From assembly GCA_020345945.1 (NCBI GenBank), contig CP070773.1, positions 602,296-609,036 of the forward strand: 6,741 nucleotides of DNA, read 5' to 3'. The translations under genes and the position numbers were made by a program. Origin of the DNA: Candidatus Bathyarchaeota archaeon. Lineage in GTDB: Archaea > Thermoproteota > Bathyarchaeia > RBG-16-48-13 > GCA-020345945. The notes under the pieces were generated by a model, which searched no databases, was not told the origin of the DNA, and saw nothing but the letters and a program-made list of their open reading frames with translations. This document shows positions 1-6,741 of the stretch, one piece after another (within the stretch, counting starts at the first letter, position 1; each line of letters begins with the position of its first letter).

Positions 1-207
1 AACTTGCCCCTATATGCTGAGTTTGAACTCGCTGGGACGAATGGTTCCCGCGATCATTTCCCCAGGTTCCCTAAGGGCCACAGCTGTTCCTCTTATCTTA
101 TCCAGCATAGTGGTCTTGCCGTGATCTACTTGGTCGGTCTACGCTCTACGCGTATGCCTGTGACCTAGAACGACCACAATAGGCTGTCTAATCGGCAGTA
201 GCCTCAC
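1..207 (-). CDS. infB: Translation initiation factor aIF5B (IF-2 family GTPase), N-terminal fragment split by two introns
   Basis: This is the start of the GTPase that promotes ribosomal subunit joining and initiator tRNA placement; the rest lies beyond the left edge. The gene is in three exons on the minus strand: 207-160, 129-55 and 22-1. Joined, they read MRLLPIRQPIVVVLGH + VDHGKTTMLDKIRGTAVALREPGEM + TQHIGAS. This is the canonical aIF5B beginning, with the G1 P-loop GHVDHGKTT at residues 15-23 and the switch I region TQHIGAS at 42-48. The unspliced sequence has no long frame: intron 1 holds an in-frame TAG (141-139) and intron 2 (32 nt) shifts the frame. The GTG start at 207 is chosen because the frame closes upstream at TAG (228-226) with no other usual start. 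It follows kae1 by 60 bp on the same strand. A pseudogene is the alternative, but exact restoration of the protein at both junctions argues against it. Confidence 0.9.
23..54 (-). other. Predicted 32-nt BHB intron 2 in aIF5B mRNA
   Basis: The intron lies between the Met and Thr codons of PGEM/TQHIGAS (phase 0), next to the switch I threonine. The outer exon helix is CTGGG (65-61) with CTCAG (21-17), including one G-T wobble. The central helix is GAAA (60-57) with GTTC (28-25), three Watson-Crick pairs plus an A-G mismatch at its inner end. The bulges are TG|A (56-54) and AA|A (24-22). The intron hairpin is TCGC (53-50) with GCGA (32-29), a bulged A (33), then GGGA (49-46) with TCCC (37-34) around an 8-nt loop. 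Cutting after the second base of each bulge gives GAA ATG ACT CAG, restoring EMTQ. The mismatch makes this a slightly relaxed BHB. Retention shifts the frame and gives a stop in exon 3. Confidence 0.87.
130..159 (-). other. Predicted 30-nt BHB intron 1 in aIF5B mRNA
   Basis: The intron interrupts the P-loop between the His and Val codons of GHVDHGKT (phase 0). On the minus strand the junction folds as a full bulge-helix-bulge. The outer exon helix is TCTA (169-166) with TAGA (128-125). The central 4-bp helix is GGTC (165-162) with GACC (135-132). The 3-nt bulges are AC|A (161-159) and AA|G (131-129). The intron hairpin pairs GG with CC and TACGC with GCGTA, separated by two mismatches, with loop GTAGA (149-145). 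Cutting after the second base of each bulge, as archaeal splicing endonuclease does, gives GGT CAC GTA GAT CAC, which reads GHVDH. The length is a multiple of three, but an in-frame TAG (141-139) prevents read-through. Protein restoration and structure were found separately and agree to the nucleotide. Confidence 0.9.
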
Positions 208-244
208 TTCCTTCAGTCTTTTAGGCTATCTTGGTTATGGGTGG

Positions 245-251
245 ATTATAA
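245..251 (-). promoter_or_regulatory. Possible TATA box for aIF5B
   Basis: The minus-strand sequence TTATAAT lies in the 60-bp gap between the kae1 stop and the aIF5B GTG. Transcription would start about 26 nt downstream, near 222, leaving a leader of about 15 nt. A purine-rich GAAGGAA sits directly before the GTG, closer than a normal ribosome-binding site. Read-through from kae1 is equally possible. Confidence 0.4.
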
Positions 252-267
252 CCCTTTGTTAGGATTT

Positions 268-1269
268 CTACCTCCAAGGGATTGGTACATCATCAATCCT
301 CCACTTTGGTATAACTTGGCTCTCTTCGTATCCTATAGCTACTCCAGACCTATAGGCTAAAATTGTGGTCCAAGAGATCTGTGCCCCACAGTCACCACTA
401 TACCTGTCTGATGCAGATGAGAAACTTGCCCCATGTTCCTCTGACATTTTTGCTAGCATCTCACGTAGACGTCTATTGGCCGCCACTCCTCCCACCAATA
501 ATACTTCCTTCTTCTCTGTATGTGATAATGTTCTTTCGGAGGCTTCTACCAGAGCAGAAAATGCGACTTCTTGGATTGAATAACAGATGTCTTCAATAGC
601 TTCTTTATTGATTGTTCGTTTTGCGGCTGTCAATAGTCCTGAGTAAGAGACATCATTTCCTTTTTGTATATATGGTAGATTCACAAACCTCTGTCCCTTC
701 TTTGCTAATTCCTCTATAGCTGGTCCTCCAGGAGAAGATAGCCCAATTTCTCTGGCGAACATATCCAAGAGATTACCGAGTGTAATGTCCTCCGTCTCGC
801 CGAATATCCTCCACTTTCCTCCTGAGAAAGCGGTTATGCATGTGTGCCCTCCTGAGACCAATATTACTAGGGGATCTTCGAGTTTTGAGGTTCTTGCTGC
901 TATTTCGATGTGTCCAATAGCATGATGTATGGGAATTAATGGTAGCGACCGGTACTTAGCGATCGTACGTGCTACGGTAGCTCCTGTACGTAGACATGGT
1001 CCAAGCCCGGGACCTCTTGAGAAGCCGACTGCGTCTATCTTTTCTATTCGTTCCCCTTCCAGCGTTAAGGCTTCTTCTAGTACCTCTGCTACTACCGAAG
1101 CATGGTGCTGGGCAGCCTCTCTTGGGTGTATTCCCTTCCCTAGTTGAGGGACATACGTACGTTTAGAGTCTGTCAATATACCTCTCTTGGATGACGCAAC
1201 ACTTACACCGAAGGTGTGTGCTGTACTCTCTATCCCTAGAGCGAGTATCTCTTCTTCAGTATCCTTCAC
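268..1269 (-). CDS. kae1: KEOPS subunit Kae1, tRNA N6-threonylcarbamoyladenosine transferase catalytic subunit
   Basis: Kae1 transfers the threonylcarbamoyl group from threonylcarbamoyl-AMP (made by Sua5/TsaC) onto A37 of ANN-decoding tRNAs, within cytosolic KEOPS. The 333-residue protein has the usual family length and is collinear with archaeal Kae1. It has ALGIESTAHTFG at 10-21, GIHPREAAQHH at 46-56 and the metal-binding HxxxH as H116/H120 in HHAIGH. It also has VSGGHT at 138-143, SYSGLLTA at 208-215, LVGGVAAN at 258-265, SGDCGAQ with the likely metal-ligand Asp at 293, and the typical C-terminus WRIDDVPIPW. No Bud32 domain is fused, unlike in several euryarchaea. The GTG start is supported by a GGTG ribosome-binding site (1280-1277) seven bases upstream. 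It overlaps the upstream membrane-protein gene by 14 nt, which suggests co-transcription. Confidence 0.96.
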   Translation of the reverse strand: MKDTEEEILALGIESTAHTFGVSVASSKRGILTDSKRTYVPQLGKGIHPREAAQHHASVVAEVLEEALTLEGERIEKIDAVGFSRGPGLGPCLRTGATVARTIAKYRSLPLIPIHHAIGHIEIAARTSKLEDPLVILVSGGHTCITAFSGGKWRIFGETEDITLGNLLDMFAREIGLSSPGGPAIEELAKKGQRFVNLPYIQKGNDVSYSGLLTAAKRTINKEAIEDICYSIQEVAFSALVEASERTLSHTEKKEVLLVGGVAANRRLREMLAKMSEEHGASFSSASDRYSGDCGAQISWTTILAYRSGVAIGYEESQVIPKWRIDDVPIPWR

Positions 1270-1587: not shown

Positions 1588-2283
1588 ATGAGCCTTCGAC
1601 GTTCTTCCAGTAGTGAAGAAGACCCAGTTGATAGAATACCTCCCGGAAGCCAAATATTGAGAAGGGGAGCTGAGGCAGTCCTCTATCGAGGGAGATGGCA
1701 TGATCTCGAGGTTGTTGTGAAAAAGAGGGTTGTAAAATCCTATCGTATTCCAAGCCTCGACCTAAAGATACGTAGGTTTCGAACAATGCGTGAATCTAAT
1801 CTTCTACATGAAGCAAAACTAGTAGGAGTGAGGACTCCCCTGATCTACTCGGTTAATCTAGATTCCACTTCCATCATCATGGAATATATCTCGGGGGATC
1901 GCCTGAAGGATGTCTTAGACAGTTTCAAATCTTCAGAACTCAATGAGTTTTCTATGCGGATAGGAGTTCTGATCGGCCGTCTTCACAGGACCGGCATCAT
2001 ACATGGTGACCTTACCACTTCGAATATGATCCTAATCCCAAAAGGGGAAATCTGTCTCTTGGACTTCGGTCTTGGAGAGCATTCGACTGGTCTGGAAGCC
2101 CGAGGAGTTGACCTGCATATACTCCGAACAATCCTCTATAGCACTCACCATACGATCGCACAGAATTCTTTTCAAAGGATTCTTGACGGTTATAGAAAGG
2201 AGATGGGTCGAGAGGAGGCTGATCCTGTTATAGGAAGGACAGATGAGATCGCGAGGAGAGGGAGATATGTCTCAGCTAGATGA
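1588..2283 (+). CDS. bud32: KEOPS subunit Bud32, atypical small serine/threonine kinase/ATPase
   Basis: Bud32 binds Kae1 in KEOPS; its ATPase activity supports t6A37 formation, and it can also phosphorylate proteins in vitro. The 231-residue product carries the reduced kinase core. It has a glycine-poor nucleotide loop RRGAEAVLY (25-33), Lys 45 or 46 in VVVKKR, the Bud32 signature YRIPSLDLKIRRFRTMRE (52-69), and HEA with Glu75. HGDLTTSNM (139-147) holds the catalytic Asp141, DFGL (159-162) the metal-binding Asp, and the basic tail RRGRYV matches the family. The N-terminus is about 20 residues longer than usual and rich in Ser/Glu. A TTG at 1657, seven bases after GGAAG, would give the usual length. 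The ATG at 1588 is preferred because the promoter sits just before it. The gene overlaps the pyrophosphatase gene by 17 nt. Confidence 0.94.
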   Translation: MSLRRSSSSEEDPVDRIPPGSQILRRGAEAVLYRGRWHDLEVVVKKRVVKSYRIPSLDLKIRRFRTMRESNLLHEAKLVGVRTPLIYSVNLDSTSIIMEYISGDRLKDVLDSFKSSELNEFSMRIGVLIGRLHRTGIIHGDLTTSNMILIPKGEICLLDFGLGEHSTGLEARGVDLHILRTILYSTHHTIAQNSFQRILDGYRKEMGREEADPVIGRTDEIARRGRYVSAR

Positions 2284-3399: not shown

Positions 3400-4839
3400 A
3401 TGCCTCCCGGTAGAGATGAAAAACTGGACATTTTCTTTCAACCAATCCACGAAGCCGCTTCTACTATCAAGTCCTTCATCAAGAAGGGGTTATTCATCCG
3501 GGTTTACTGTCATCACGATGCCGATGGTGTTTCCGCTGGTGGGATTATTGGAAGAGCACTAGGTCGATTGGGGGCTGACTTTCGAATCCGAGTCTGGAAG
3601 CAGATGGATGACCTCCTGCTCAAGGACCTTGCTTCGGAGAGCCCCTCTCCATGTATATTCATAGACCTTGGCGGCGGCTATCTCGATATCATTCAGGAAT
3701 ATCTAAAAGATGTGAATGTCATCATTCTTGATCACCACGAACCTTCAGGAGACCCGTTTCCTAGCCTTATACACGCGAATCCTCACCTCTCTGGTCTGGA
3801 TGGTGCTCGCGAAGTCAGCGGTTCTGGCGTATCCTACTTTGTCGCAAAGAGTCTAGACTCCAAGAACGTTGATCTGTCTTGTGTCGCAGTTGTTGGTGCT
3901 CTAGGAGACCTCCAAGACAAGAATGAAGAACGAGAGTTGAAGGGGATAAATGCTACGATAGTCAGAGATGGGATAGATGCTAACGTTCTCGCTGTCGAGA
4001 AGGATCTCCTCTTCTTCGGTCGAGAGACTAGACCAATCCACAGGGCCCTATCTCTAACCACTAATCCTTTTATTCCCGGACTATCTGGACATGAAGACCA
4101 GTGTCTCGGCTTTCTAGTCAATCTCGGCTTCCAGTTGAAGGATGGAGAACGATGGAGGACTTTGGCGGAGCTCAGCAAAGACGAGAAACAACTTCTCTTC
4201 TCAAAACTAGTCGAATATATTGTTGAAAGCGGCTCATCGAATTCTTCTCCTCTTGAGCTGATTGGTAAGGTCTACACGCTTATCCGCGAGGATAAATTGA
4301 CTTTCCTGAGGGATGGGCGAGAATTTTCTTCCTTATTGAATGCTTGTTCTCGCACTCAGAAGACCGGGCTTGCCCTGGCAATCTGTTTAGGTAGTAGAGG
4401 GTCCACATTGCATGAGGCAGAGGCTGCTGTAGAAGAGTATCGTAGGACGCTGGCCAAATATCTTGATTGGGCTGCCAGCGACCAAGGAAATGTTGAGGAG
4501 ACGGATTTCTGTTATATTCTCAGGGGTGAGAAGGTTGTGGATGAGAGAATGATCGGTTCAGTCTCTTCGATCTTGGTGGCCTCTAACATACTTAATCCTT
4601 CCAAGCCTCTCATCTCTATTGCTTTAACCGAGGAAGGAATGATCAAGGTCTCAGCTCGTGCTTCCACCTCTCTCTTAGAGAAAGGTCTCAACCTTGGTAC
4701 TATTATGCAGAAGGCTGCTGAACTAGTAAATGGGAGGGGTGGGGGGCACGACGTGGCTGCAGGGGCTCTTATACCTGTAGGAAGCGAAGACCCATTTCTC
4801 CATGAGACCATGATACTTCTCAAGGAGGTCTTGGGTTGA
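3400..4839 (+). CDS. Archaeal RecJ-like DHH/DHHA1 single-strand-specific phosphoesterase
   Basis: Archaeal RecJ-like DHH proteins are metal-dependent exonucleases on single-stranded DNA or RNA; some associate with the replicative CMG helicase (GAN), others trim RNA or DNA ends. The 479-residue product has motif I HHDADGVSAGG (38-48), motif II FIDLGGG, motif III LDHHE with the DHH at 111-113, and motif IV VVGALGD with an invariant Asp. A C-terminal DHHA1 substrate-binding domain ends in the glycine loop GGGHDVAAGA, with GGGH at 447-450. All expected metal ligands are present, so it should be active. Which subgroup it belongs to cannot be told from the sequence alone. An in-frame TTG at 3394 is an alternative start; ATG 3400 is preferred and follows GGGA by six bases. 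It starts 18 nt after uS15 and overlaps pcc1 by four bases. Confidence 0.9.
   Translation: MPPGRDEKLDIFFQPIHEAASTIKSFIKKGLFIRVYCHHDADGVSAGGIIGRALGRLGADFRIRVWKQMDDLLLKDLASESPSPCIFIDLGGGYLDIIQEYLKDVNVIILDHHEPSGDPFPSLIHANPHLSGLDGAREVSGSGVSYFVAKSLDSKNVDLSCVAVVGALGDLQDKNEERELKGINATIVRDGIDANVLAVEKDLLFFGRETRPIHRALSLTTNPFIPGLSGHEDQCLGFLVNLGFQLKDGERWRTLAELSKDEKQLLFSKLVEYIVESGSSNSSPLELIGKVYTLIREDKLTFLRDGREFSSLLNACSRTQKTGLALAICLGSRGSTLHEAEAAVEEYRRTLAKYLDWAASDQGNVEETDFCYILRGEKVVDERMIGSVSSILVASNILNPSKPLISIALTEEGMIKVSARASTSLLEKGLNLGTIMQKAAELVNGRGGGHDVAAGALIPVGSEDPFLHETMILLKEVLG
4822..4829 (+). promoter_or_regulatory. Strong ribosome-binding site fixing the TTG start of pcc1
   Basis: AAGGAGGT, a near-complete anti-16S match inside the end of the DHH gene, lies six bases before the TTG at 4836. 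It settles an otherwise doubtful non-ATG start and suggests coupled translation, since the TTG overlaps the upstream stop (TTGA). Confidence 0.8.
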
Positions 4840-5099
4840 CAGATCGAGTCCAGGAAGCTTATGTTGTTATAATGTGTGATGGGGCTGGAGAGGCTGAGAG
4901 TATCGTCTCAGCTATTTCACCAGATAATATAGTCCCCGGGGATGATTTGATAGTAGATACATGGAATGAAGATAGAGAAGTGCGTTGTGTGGTCTCATGT
5001 AGGAGAGGTTTAAGGTCCTTGATATCGACTTTAGACGATATCCTGTTGTCTGTGAAAATCGCGGATAATACTCTACAATCAATACAGAAGGACGTTTAG
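4836..5099 (+). CDS. pcc1: KEOPS subunit Pcc1 (dimerisation subunit)
   Basis: Pcc1 is the small dimer-forming subunit that binds Kae1 and helps hold the tRNA substrate. The 87-residue product has the typical size and pattern. An initial strand (EAYVVIMCDG) leads to a helix with AISPDN (about 26-31), matching the family's alpha-helix plus AI.PDN signature. The strands DLIVDTWNEDREVRCVVSC come next, then the closing helix RGLRSLISTLDDILLSVKIADNTL, which matches the family's LR.TLND.L.S...A..TL. The TTG start at 4836 is supported by the AAGGAGGT site, and the gene overlaps the DHH stop codon. With kae1 and bud32 about 3 kb away, three KEOPS subunits are in the window; Cgi121 is not seen. In many archaea the next gene is eS1 (S3Ae), which is absent here. 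Confidence 0.88.
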   Translation: MTDRVQEAYVVIMCDGAGEAESIVSAISPDNIVPGDDLIVDTWNEDREVRCVVSCRRGLRSLISTLDDILLSVKIADNTLQSIQKDV

Positions 5100-5241
5100 A
5101 TCTGCAATAGCCAGTAGGTGTCAAATGTTCCCATATGATCAAGAAGGGTTCTCCGTTCTCATGAAGTATAGATTTTTTAGATGCTGGATTTAAGATTGAA
5201 GAGTACAGAGGGTGTATCGCACGCCGAAAGATAGGTTCTGG
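5100..5241 (+). other. Spacer between pcc1 and SerRS with possible terminator and promoter
   Basis: This 142-bp spacer has no tRNA or stable gene that I can support. A six-T run (5173-5178) could end the pcc1 transcript. GATTTAAG (5187-5194) is a weak TATA candidate that would start transcription near 5217, which agrees with the SerRS ATG at 5242. An ATG at 5161 opens only a ten-codon frame (MKYRFFRCWI). From the GTG at 5212 the SerRS frame is also open, so 5212-5241 may be coding. Confidence 0.4.
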
Positions 5242-6741
5242 ATGGTACTAGACGGAGTATTATCTCTTAGTCGTTCTGACCCTAAGATAAAGGACTTAGT
5301 AGCCTCCTTCATCGATGAGGCAAACCGTTCAACTCTCGTTAGAGGAGTTTCCGATGATAGGCTTGAAGAGGCCGCGCAGGTTACAGACTGGAAGATCAAG
5401 AACAATATACTTCTTCTGACAATCGAGTCTGGAAAGCTGGTCAGGGCAACTTCAGGGCTTCTCCGTGTAAGGAAAGCGTTGGCTCCTTTACTAGGAAGAG
5501 AGCTGAGAATCGGGGTGCGTGACATCTCGGTTGCAGCTCTAAGAGTATTCATACCGCTGACGGTCAAACCGGATGAAGAGACCATTACAAGAGTTAAGTC
5601 GATTCCTAAGGTTTCTTCCATCGAACTTAATGAGCAGGGAGTATTGATCGGTTTTGAGTTATTAACGGAAGGAGAGGTTCAAAAAGGAATCCCTGAAAGG
5701 GCAATCCATCTTGCGGAGAGACTATTTACTGAAGAAGAACTCAAAGAGACTCAGGTTCCGCAAGAGACTCTGATCGTGCGACAGAGTGGTGAAAAGCCGA
5801 TACTTTATCGTGAAGATCCCATGCAGGTTGCGATAGACAAGGGATGGGTGAAGGAGTTTCCAGGTCGTGGTCAGTGGATCTATACCCCACCGTACGTTAG
5901 GCTTCTTGAGACCCTCGAGAAGATACTTATGGATGAGATCGTTCACAAGTTGGGATTCATTCCGTTCATGTTGCCTAAATTGATCCCTCTTGAGGTCATG
6001 AAGTTGATGCCGGGATACTTTGACAGCATTCCTGAAGGAATGTACTATGTCTGCCCTCCCCCAAGGGATTCAGAAGCCTTCGATAGATTCAAGAATCTCT
6101 ACAGGATAACTCGTGAGGTTTCACGTGAGGAGCTTAAACGAGTAGTCAAGGAACCGAACTATGTTCTCGATCCATCTCAGTGTACACCTCTATGGTATTT
6201 CTTAAGCCATGAGACTATCGATGTCTCTCTCCTCCCCTTCAAGTTCTACGATAGATCAGGATGGACCTATAGGTGGGAAGGTGGTGGGGTGGAAGGTTTG
6301 GTACGTGTTCAGGAATTTCGACGGGTAGAACTCGTCTATATCGCTGATCCAGAGGAGACTGCTAAGATTCGTGACTCCGTGCTTGAAGAGTCTATTAGAG
6401 TTGTCGATGAGATCTTAGGGATGGAGTGGAGGATTGTCGCGGCCTCACCATTCTTTGTCCGTAAAGAAGAGGCTGCTCGCATAGAAGGTGGAGAGAGTAT
6501 TGATATCCCGGCCTATGACTTAGAGGTCTATCTTCCCTATAGAGGTGAAAGGGAGTCCTCTGAATGGCTTGAGATAACCTCTTGTTTTATTCATAAGAAA
6601 GAGTTCGTTGACTCGTTTAGAATCCGGGAAGCTAAGAATAAAGAGATTTGGTCTGGTTGCAGTGGTCTCGGAGTAAGCAGATGGGTTGCCGCTTTCCTTG
6701 CTACATATGGATTTGATGTTGCTTTGTGGCCGGATAGAGTT
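5242..6741 (+). CDS. serS: Type 2 (methanogen-type) seryl-tRNA synthetase, C-terminus cut by window edge
   Basis: The enzyme charges tRNA-Ser with serine using ATP, and also supplies Ser-tRNA-Sec where selenocysteine is used. The frame is open for 500 codons to the edge; the family ends some 15-20 residues after the final LWPDRV. It matches the rare type 2 SerRS, not the common type. The N-terminal tRNA-binding domain has FIDEAN..TLVRG, VTDWKI and ESGKLVRATSGLLRVRK. RGQWI, MLPKLIP and YYVCPPP follow, then motif 2 RVQEFRRVELVYI and motif 3 WSGCSGLGVSRWVAAFLA. The three zinc ligands of this type are present: Cys314 (SQCTPLW), Glu346 (RWEGGG) and Cys473 (WSGCSG). ATG 5242 has AGG six bases upstream but begins about four residues short of relatives. 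GTG 5212 adds ten residues and is the alternative. Its position after pcc1 replaces the usual eS1 gene. Confidence 0.93.
   Translation, partial: MVLDGVLSLSRSDPKIKDLVASFIDEANRSTLVRGVSDDRLEEAAQVTDWKIKNNILLLTIESGKLVRATSGLLRVRKALAPLLGRELRIGVRDISVAALRVFIPLTVKPDEETITRVKSIPKVSSIELNEQGVLIGFELLTEGEVQKGIPERAIHLAERLFTEEELKETQVPQETLIVRQSGEKPILYREDPMQVAIDKGWVKEFPGRGQWIYTPPYVRLLETLEKILMDEIVHKLGFIPFMLPKLIPLEVMKLMPGYFDSIPEGMYYVCPPPRDSEAFDRFKNLYRITREVSREELKRVVKEPNYVLDPSQCTPLWYFLSHETIDVSLLPFKFYDRSGWTYRWEGGGVEGLVRVQEFRRVELVYIADPEETAKIRDSVLEESIRVVDEILGMEWRIVAASPFFVRKEEAARIEGGESIDIPAYDLEVYLPYRGERESSEWLEITSCFIHKKEFVDSFRIREAKNKEIWSGCSGLGVSRWVAAFLATYGFDVALWPDRV

What the first reader, a model, noticed from the sequence alone, without database searches (positions are those of the whole stretch)
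130..159. A 30-nt BHB intron splits the P-loop of aIF5B
The sequence GH|VDHGKTT of a near-universal GTPase is interrupted by 30 nt with an in-frame stop. The junction forms a canonical hBHBh' structure: 4-bp central helix GGTC/GACC and two 3-nt bulges. Endonuclease cuts at the standard bulge positions restore the P-loop exactly. Bulge-helix-bulge introns are usual in archaeal tRNA and rRNA, but in protein genes the established case is cbf5 of Crenarchaeota. An intron in a translation factor at its catalytic loop is, to my knowledge, unusual. A gene caller would miss the N-terminus.
Basis: partly seen in the sequence, partly recalled or inferred. Interest (0 to 1): 0.95.

Follow-up and report, generated by a model that had tools for sequence, protein, structure and literature searches.

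The report
Two tiny introns in archaeal aIF5B
In an uncultured archaeon the gene for a core protein-synthesis factor (aIF5B) is broken by two inserts of 30 and 32 bases, one inside its GTP-binding loop, that are likely introns cut out of the messenger RNA by the cell's tRNA-splicing enzymes; other archaea have inserts at the same two places, while the papers found here report such introns within the coding sequence of only one other archaeal gene.

Summary
Minus strand 159..130 is a 30-nt insert with an in-frame TAG between GH and VDHGKTT of aIF5B; its bulge-helix-bulge (BHB) has a 4/4 central helix, and 2|1 cuts restore the P-loop. In 256 genomes of the class, site A was readable in 225 and interrupted in 18, site B in 3. 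Three further genomes of the phylum (one a Brockarchaeota by contig match) carry A (3) and B (2). All 26 inserts (17-37 nt) disrupt the frame; with boundaries set to restore the protein, the central helix sits at the canonical offset with 4/4 pairs in 23 and 3/4 in 3. 21 of 26 pass a strict test against 0.035 expected; inner helices covary. RtcB and one EndA subunit were found in this 66%-complete genome. Weak points: no transcript evidence; intron B's central pairs are absent from its predicted fold; no catalytic EndA subunit found here. Best reading: EndA/RtcB-spliced archaeal pre-mRNA introns in a gene other than cbf5, two in one gene. A new member of a known kind, and a notable one.

The parts
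245..251 (-). TATA-like sequence (TTATAAT) upstream of aIF5B, downstream of the Kae1 stop codon
   Evidence: Sequence read by eye; promoter role is inference
160..207 (-). aIF5B exon 1, from a GTG at 207 (a CTG at 198 lines up with the TTG or ATG start of relatives); ends ...VVVLGH
162..165 (-). GGTC, 5' strand of the central helix of intron A (in exon 1)
130..159 (-). Intron A, 30 nt, in-frame TAG, predicted BHB with cuts 160|159 and 130|129
132..135 (-). GACC, 3' strand of the central helix of intron A (in the intron)
55..129 (-). aIF5B exon 2, VDHGKTTMLDKIRGTAVALREPGEM
23..54 (-). Intron B, 32 nt, frame-shifting, predicted cuts 55|54 and 23|22 (central helix 3 of 4 pairs, not formed in the predicted fold)
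1..22 (-). aIF5B exon 3 (start), TQHIGAS, cut by a 100-N scaffold gap

Best explanation
The start of the aIF5B gene in this window is interrupted at two places (159-130 and 54-23, minus strand) by short inserts that are most likely bulge-helix-bulge introns, predicted to be cut from the pre-mRNA by the archaeal tRNA-splicing endonuclease (EndA) and their exons joined by the RtcB ligase. Shown by sequence: two inserts break the reading frame of a gene found once in the assembly; removing them gives GHVDHGKTT and GEMTQHIGAS; the same two sites carry inserts of the same architecture, with other hairpins, in other archaea. Inferred: EndA recognises the folded pre-mRNA and makes both cuts, RtcB joins the exons, and only spliced mRNA makes a working GTPase, because intron A lies inside the GxxxxGKT motif and intron B shifts the frame. 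The introns look like passive insertions, old within sub-lineages, that persist because EndA is kept for tRNA processing; nothing here shows a regulatory role.
For: Inserts and restored junctions. Site A interrupted in 18 of 225 readable genomes of the class and in 3 more of the phylum; site B in 3 of the same 225 and in 2 more. All 26 inserts carry an in-frame stop (24) or shift the frame (20), or both. With boundaries set to restore the protein, the central helix lies at the canonical 2|1 offset with 4/4 pairs in 23 of 26 and 3/4 in 3; 21 of 26 have central 4/4 and inner 3 or more, against 0.035 expected from shuffled inserts. Changes on both sides of pairs: 8 of 21 (10 sequences) and 5 of 16 (7 distinct sequences). 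RtcB over the whole PF01139 profile and one EndA subunit gene in this genome; 20 of 27 genomes examined have two EndA genes, 1 has three, 5 one, 1 none. No Rfam family, self-splicing introns included, in window 1-420 at E up to 5.
Against: No RNA evidence. In this genome intron A has only 2 inner pairs at the canonical place, and intron B has 3/4 central pairs, none of which forms in the predicted fold; the predicted folds of G083-A, G081-A and G275-B also lack them. The EndA gene found here looks by eye like the subunit without the partner's His; the other was not found. Boundaries were chosen to restore the protein, and for the ten phase-1 inserts the 2|1 register was preferred between two that fit. 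The shuffle controls ignore relatedness, and one covariation measure (further pair types) did not exceed its shuffles in either set (492/500 and 72/500). No other convincing mRNA intron turned up in about a third of the genome, with a scan too strict to see these two.
Confidence: 0.92

Rival explanations
1. Assembly or sequencing error near a scaffold end: the inserts are artefacts.
For: The window begins at a 100-N gap, and the genome is a metagenome assembly of 66% completeness.
Against: Different inserts with the same architecture stand at the same sites in other genomes: 20 others at site A, 4 others at site B. Errors would not give hairpins with paired changes.
Confidence: 0.02
2. The gene is a dead copy, and translation uses another factor or another aIF5B.
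For: The frame is broken twice, and the genome is incomplete, so a second copy could be missing.
Against: The C-terminal 371 aa are an intact frame, 93% identical to the nearest database protein. The breaks are clean inserts at two sites shared with other genomes, where the rest of the gene is open. No other aIF5B was found here.
Confidence: 0.02
3. The inserts stay in the mRNA and the ribosome deals with them, by reading TAG as an amino acid (for example pyrrolysine) or by skipping the insert.
For: Insert A is a multiple of three with a single TAG.
Against: It would leave ten extra residues inside the GxxxxGKT motif. Insert B shifts the frame, as do 20 of the 26 inserts, and the other inserts carry TAA and TGA as well.
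Confidence: 0.01
4. EndA cuts the RNA but the exons are not rejoined: the BHB is a site for destroying or processing the mRNA, not an intron.
For: A BHB in the 5' UTR of HVO_1309 is cut by EndA in Haloferax (PMC7714728, passages read).
Against: Cutting without joining would part the start codon and P-loop from the rest of an apparently single gene; the cuts lie where joining restores the protein, and RtcB is present.
Confidence: 0.03

Closest known systems
cbf5 pre-mRNA intron of Desulfurococcales and Sulfolobales (PMC2738675; abstract, outline and part 1 of 2 of Results and discussion read)
   Same: BHB intron inside a conserved archaeal protein gene; cuts predicted between the second and third base of each bulge; shared position with intronless lineages in between; loss inferred there.
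   Different: Another gene and other lineages; two intron positions instead of one; the cbf5 elements are described there as mostly unconventional BHB, while here 23 of 26 have the 4-bp centre with 3-nt bulges; cbf5 splicing has cDNA support, this has none.
BHB introns of archaeal tRNA and rRNA
   Same: Same motif (4-bp helix, two 3-nt bulges; PMC6379350, passages read) and, by inference, the same enzymes.
   Different: Here in an mRNA, where a reading frame and the P-loop must be restored.
BHB element in the 5' UTR of HVO_1309 of Haloferax (PMC7714728, passages read)
   Same: An mRNA substrate of EndA.
   Different: It lies outside the coding sequence.
IF-2 intein at the P-loop (seen in G560, L122; that such inteins are known is recalled)
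   Same: Insertion into the same GHVDHGK loop of the same gene.
   Different: A long in-frame protein insert, spliced as protein; here short inserts with stops or frame shifts.

Membership tests
Archaeal BHB (EndA-type) intron | Helix of 4 bp with a 3-nt bulge on each side at the exon-intron borders | tested here: met
   Intron A of this window 4/4 (probability 0.99-1.0 in the fold); intron B 3/4 and not formed in the fold; over 26 inserts 4/4 in 23 and 3/4 in 3
Archaeal BHB (EndA-type) intron | Cuts between bulge bases 2 and 3 restore the mature product | tested here: met
   Restored junction residues printed for 26 of 26; boundaries were picked for that, so what is tested is that the helix falls at the right offset
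Archaeal BHB (EndA-type) intron | Structure conserved while sequence changes | tested here: met
   Pairs changed on both sides: 8 of 21 and 5 of 16; slid registers give 0 to 2
Archaeal BHB (EndA-type) intron | Splicing endonuclease in the genome | tested here: inconclusive
   One PF01974 gene, by eye the non-catalytic type; catalytic partner not found in a 66%-complete genome
Archaeal BHB (EndA-type) intron | RtcB ligase in the genome | tested here: met
   E 1.9e-173 over the whole profile
Archaeal BHB (EndA-type) intron | Spliced RNA observed | not testable with these tools
   No transcript data at hand
cbf5 intron | Lies in the cbf5 gene | tested here: not met
   The gene is aIF5B; cbf5 of this genome was not examined
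Group I or II self-splicing intron | Catalytic core recognised by its covariance model | tested here: not met
   No Rfam match in window 1-420 at E up to 5; inserts of 30 and 32 nt
Intein | Open in-frame protein insert | tested here: not met
   10 codons with a stop (A); 32-nt frame shift (B)

The most novel reading that the evidence does not exclude
Two introns sat at fixed positions in aIF5B before Bathyarchaeia and Brockarchaeota parted and have since been lost by precise deletion many times: very old, positionally conserved introns in a prokaryotic protein gene. They make synthesis of a core translation GTPase depend on the tRNA-splicing enzymes, coupling translation capacity to tRNA maturation.
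Probability: 0.2. Interest if true: 0.92.

Novelty: new member of a known kind. Interest (0 to 1): 0.82.

Why it matters
If spliced as predicted, archaeal pre-mRNA splicing is not confined to cbf5: it occurs in a translation factor found throughout archaea, twice in one gene, with inserts down to 17 nt, in uncultured lineages. Gene callers cut such proteins short, so database copies lack the GTPase P-loop: P0056, labelled Bathyarchaeota archaeon BA2, starts at MLDQIRKSS, just past the P-loop, and P0121, labelled Brockarchaeota archaeon, is 547 aa instead of about 590. Gain and loss of archaeal mRNA introns becomes testable on a gene that nearly every archaeal genome holds.

Tried and rejected
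(1) Introns common across this genome: a strict BHB-plus-frame scan of the window and 400 kb of G000 (20 stretches, about a third) listed 49 rows. Seven were read; by eye they join neighbouring or antisense ORFs or ORF ends; the other 42 were not read. The scan would have missed both aIF5B introns of this genome (inner helix 2; central helix 3).
(2) 400 kb of G000 against 400 kb of G002 (113 of 734 and 110 of 895 ORF queries with a hit of 40% identity or more), and ten relative loci against both (48 and 121 of 385): the one intron-like insert recognised was the known aIF5B one of G002. A ZIP-like gene (L162) has a frame shift at a short repeat, no BHB seen by eye. The other flagged rows were not each inspected.
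(3) Idea that the exons at site A are predisposed by a built-in palindrome: in 46 intronless genes site A ranks at median percentile 0.30 for exon-exon pairing, within the best 5% in 4 of 46; rejected.
(4) Model R1 over 398 phylum genomes: besides G020 and G026 only G465, with no aIF5B in the locus (by eye a HypC-like gene). R1 did not find G000, so it is narrow.
(5) Model R2 over 398 phylum genomes: 18 hits. Five are aIF5B introns (G000, G028, G275, G296, G297). Eleven are 28-nt matches, the length of the model without an intron; four of these loci were read (three intact P-loops, one intein, G560) and seven were not. Two 63-nt matches (G324, G360) gave no aIF5B row and were not pursued.
(6) Model R3 over the 12 held genomes of G275's class: only G275 and G296.
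(7) aIF5B in viral contigs: none.
(9) The first alignment for R3 (A4) used wrong stretches and was redone (A5).

Full report
What was checked. The window is G000:C1:602296-609036 of a 1,186,195-base metagenome-assembled genome, 66% complete, in which 100-N gaps were seen at the two places read. By Kae1 the nearest named relatives are Hecatellales and other Bathyarchaeota (60-64% identity); 'Bathyarchaeia' for the window's class rests on those names, since the genome search gives none. The minus strand from about 207 to 1 encodes the start of aIF5B, and window base 1 is a scaffold edge. The other aIF5B match in the genome is a C-terminal piece, residues 222-592, beside another gap. I read this as one gene cut by the assembly.

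The reported insert. 159..130 parts VLGH from VDHGKTT and reads RHTRRA*TDQ. Its central helix is GGUC/GACC, its bulges AC|A and AA|G, its outer helix 4 pairs, its inner helix 2 pairs followed by two mismatches and 5 pairs. Removing it gives GHVDHGKTT.

A second insert. With intron A removed the gene still fails: after ...REPGEM comes nonsense and a stop. The last 22 bases of the window read ACT CAG CAT ATA GGG GCA AGT, i.e. TQHIGAS, which follows this point in relatives. The 32 bases between, 54..23, are intron B: bulges UG|A and AA|A, outer helix 5, inner helix 4, central helix 3 of 4. It shifts the frame, so reading through it cannot rescue the protein. As a structure it is weaker than intron A: predicted folds do not form its central pairs. 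Its case rests on the exact junction and on inserts at the same site elsewhere.

Distribution. 256 genomes of the class were searched with an intronless aIF5B (L011, 592 aa). By hand tally of the rows, plus the window, the junction at site A is covered in 225: 18 interrupted, 207 continuous (in 43 of these the DNA at the site was read). Two registers exist. Phase 0 (CAY|GTN): G000 and the seven readable genomes of family f18. Phase 1 (CATR|TCGAY): four genomes of f12, one of f15, one of f16, four of f20. Site B is interrupted in 3 of the 225: G000, G002 (33 nt, same order) and G079 (19 nt). These are minimum counts: an in-frame insert without a stop could pass unseen. In 398 genomes of the phylum, model R2 found three more carriers outside the class: G275 and G296 with both introns (A 18 and 17 nt, B 18 and 20 nt) and G297 with A (23 nt). 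G275's contig of 53,981 bases has the length of the contig of P0121, which is 100% identical and labelled IF-2 of a Candidatus Brockarchaeota archaeon. In all, 26 introns in 23 genomes.

More than chance. All 26 inserts disrupt the frame (24 hold an in-frame stop, 20 are not a multiple of three). Boundaries were set to restore the protein; the central helix then lies at the canonical 2|1 offset with 4/4 pairs in 23 of 26 and 3/4 in 3 (G028-A, G080-A, G000-B). 21 of 26 have central 4/4 and inner 3 or more, against 0.035 expected when the letters of each insert are shuffled; many of the 26 are related, so they are not 26 independent events. Predicted folds hold all four central pairs in 15 of 26, at least three in 22, and none in G083-A, G081-A, G000-B and G275-B. 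Pairs with changes on both sides: 8 of 21 in the phase-1 set (10 sequences) and 5 of 16 in the phase-0 set (7 distinct); registers slid by 1-3 give 0 to 2. One of the five measures, further pair types, does not exceed its shuffles in either set. The tool warns that its shuffles ignore relatedness, and the structures were derived from these sequences.

Evolution. On a tree of 63 aIF5B rows built from residues downstream of both sites, the fewest changes of state are 9 for site A and 3 for site B (quick method, 14 open forks). Counts on an unrooted tree cannot tell gain from loss. The phase-1 introns resemble one another across f12, f15, f16 and f20, with intronless genomes between them, which looks like one origin and repeated precise loss; that is inference. 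PMC2738675 reached that view for cbf5.

Machinery. G000 encodes RtcB over the whole profile and one EndA subunit gene next to a gap. By eye it matches the G002 subunit that lacks the His of its partner; which residues are catalytic is recalled. Of 27 genomes examined 20 have two such genes, which suggests a two-subunit enzyme; the partner was not found in this incomplete genome.

Annotation effect. The 11 nearest relatives of this aIF5B (P0002-P0012, 70-93% identity) are predicted at 425-560 aa, while the next two (58-59%) are 592 aa with PF01926. Eight of the 11 were read (P0007, P0010 and P0011 were not): all eight lack the P-loop, which fits introns but could in part be contig ends. P0009 and P0012 begin MFRRVQ before TQHIGAS; RVQ is also the translation of the last nine bases of this genome's intron B, as if their predicted start lay in the same intron (inference). 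P0056, labelled Bathyarchaeota archaeon BA2, lies on a contig of 47,560 bases like G090:C12, which carries intron A, and starts just past the P-loop.

Literature. Searches (open-licence PMC papers; some lists capped) showed no title or abstract start naming an aIF5B intron or an mRNA intron of Bathyarchaeia or Brockarchaeota. PMC7714728 (passages) states that only the cbf5 mRNA intron had been reported and adds a 5'-UTR case. PMC2738675: abstract, outline and part 1 of 2 of Results and discussion. PMC12397907, PMC6379350, PMC11782384, PMC13149111, PMC7531240 and PMC12817955: found passages only. Preprints and most subscription papers are not covered, so absence from print is not proven.

Verdict. 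The mechanism is the known archaeal BHB splicing pathway; what is new is the gene, two introns in one gene, their small size and their recurrence at two fixed sites. Splicing is predicted, not observed.

Noticed in passing
L122 (around G560:C7:53083-53110): An intein-like insert in the same P-loop of aIF5B (GHVDHGK then CLHPDE... to ...IVHN then TTLLDK), so this loop takes up both protein introns and RNA introns.
   Followed up: no
G163:C1:419624-420352 and 444614-445684: aIF5B in two pieces (residues 1-243 and 236-591) on the same strand, 24 kb apart in a one-contig genome: a split gene, a large insertion or joined scaffolds.
   Followed up: no
L162:17437-18187 (G002): ZIP-like gene with a frame shift at a short direct repeat, without a BHB seen by eye.
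   Followed up: partly
window 5212-6741 (+): Class II aminoacyl-tRNA synthetase with PF18490 (tRNA_bind_4); by recall the rare methanogen type of seryl-tRNA synthetase.
   Followed up: no
window 268-1269 (-), 1588-2283 (+), 4836-5099 (+): Kae1/TsaD and a Bud32-like kinase, and a small ORF without a Pfam match that by eye recalls Pcc1: a likely cluster of KEOPS genes next to aIF5B.
   Followed up: no
G218:C1:597072-598841: aIF5B match with one TGA inside, in a one-contig genome; its N-terminal region (L076) is intact.
   Followed up: partly
P0066: The IF-2 protein labelled Bathyarchaeota archaeon BA1 starts at MTQHIGAS, so that genome may also carry a site-A intron; its DNA was not read.
   Followed up: no
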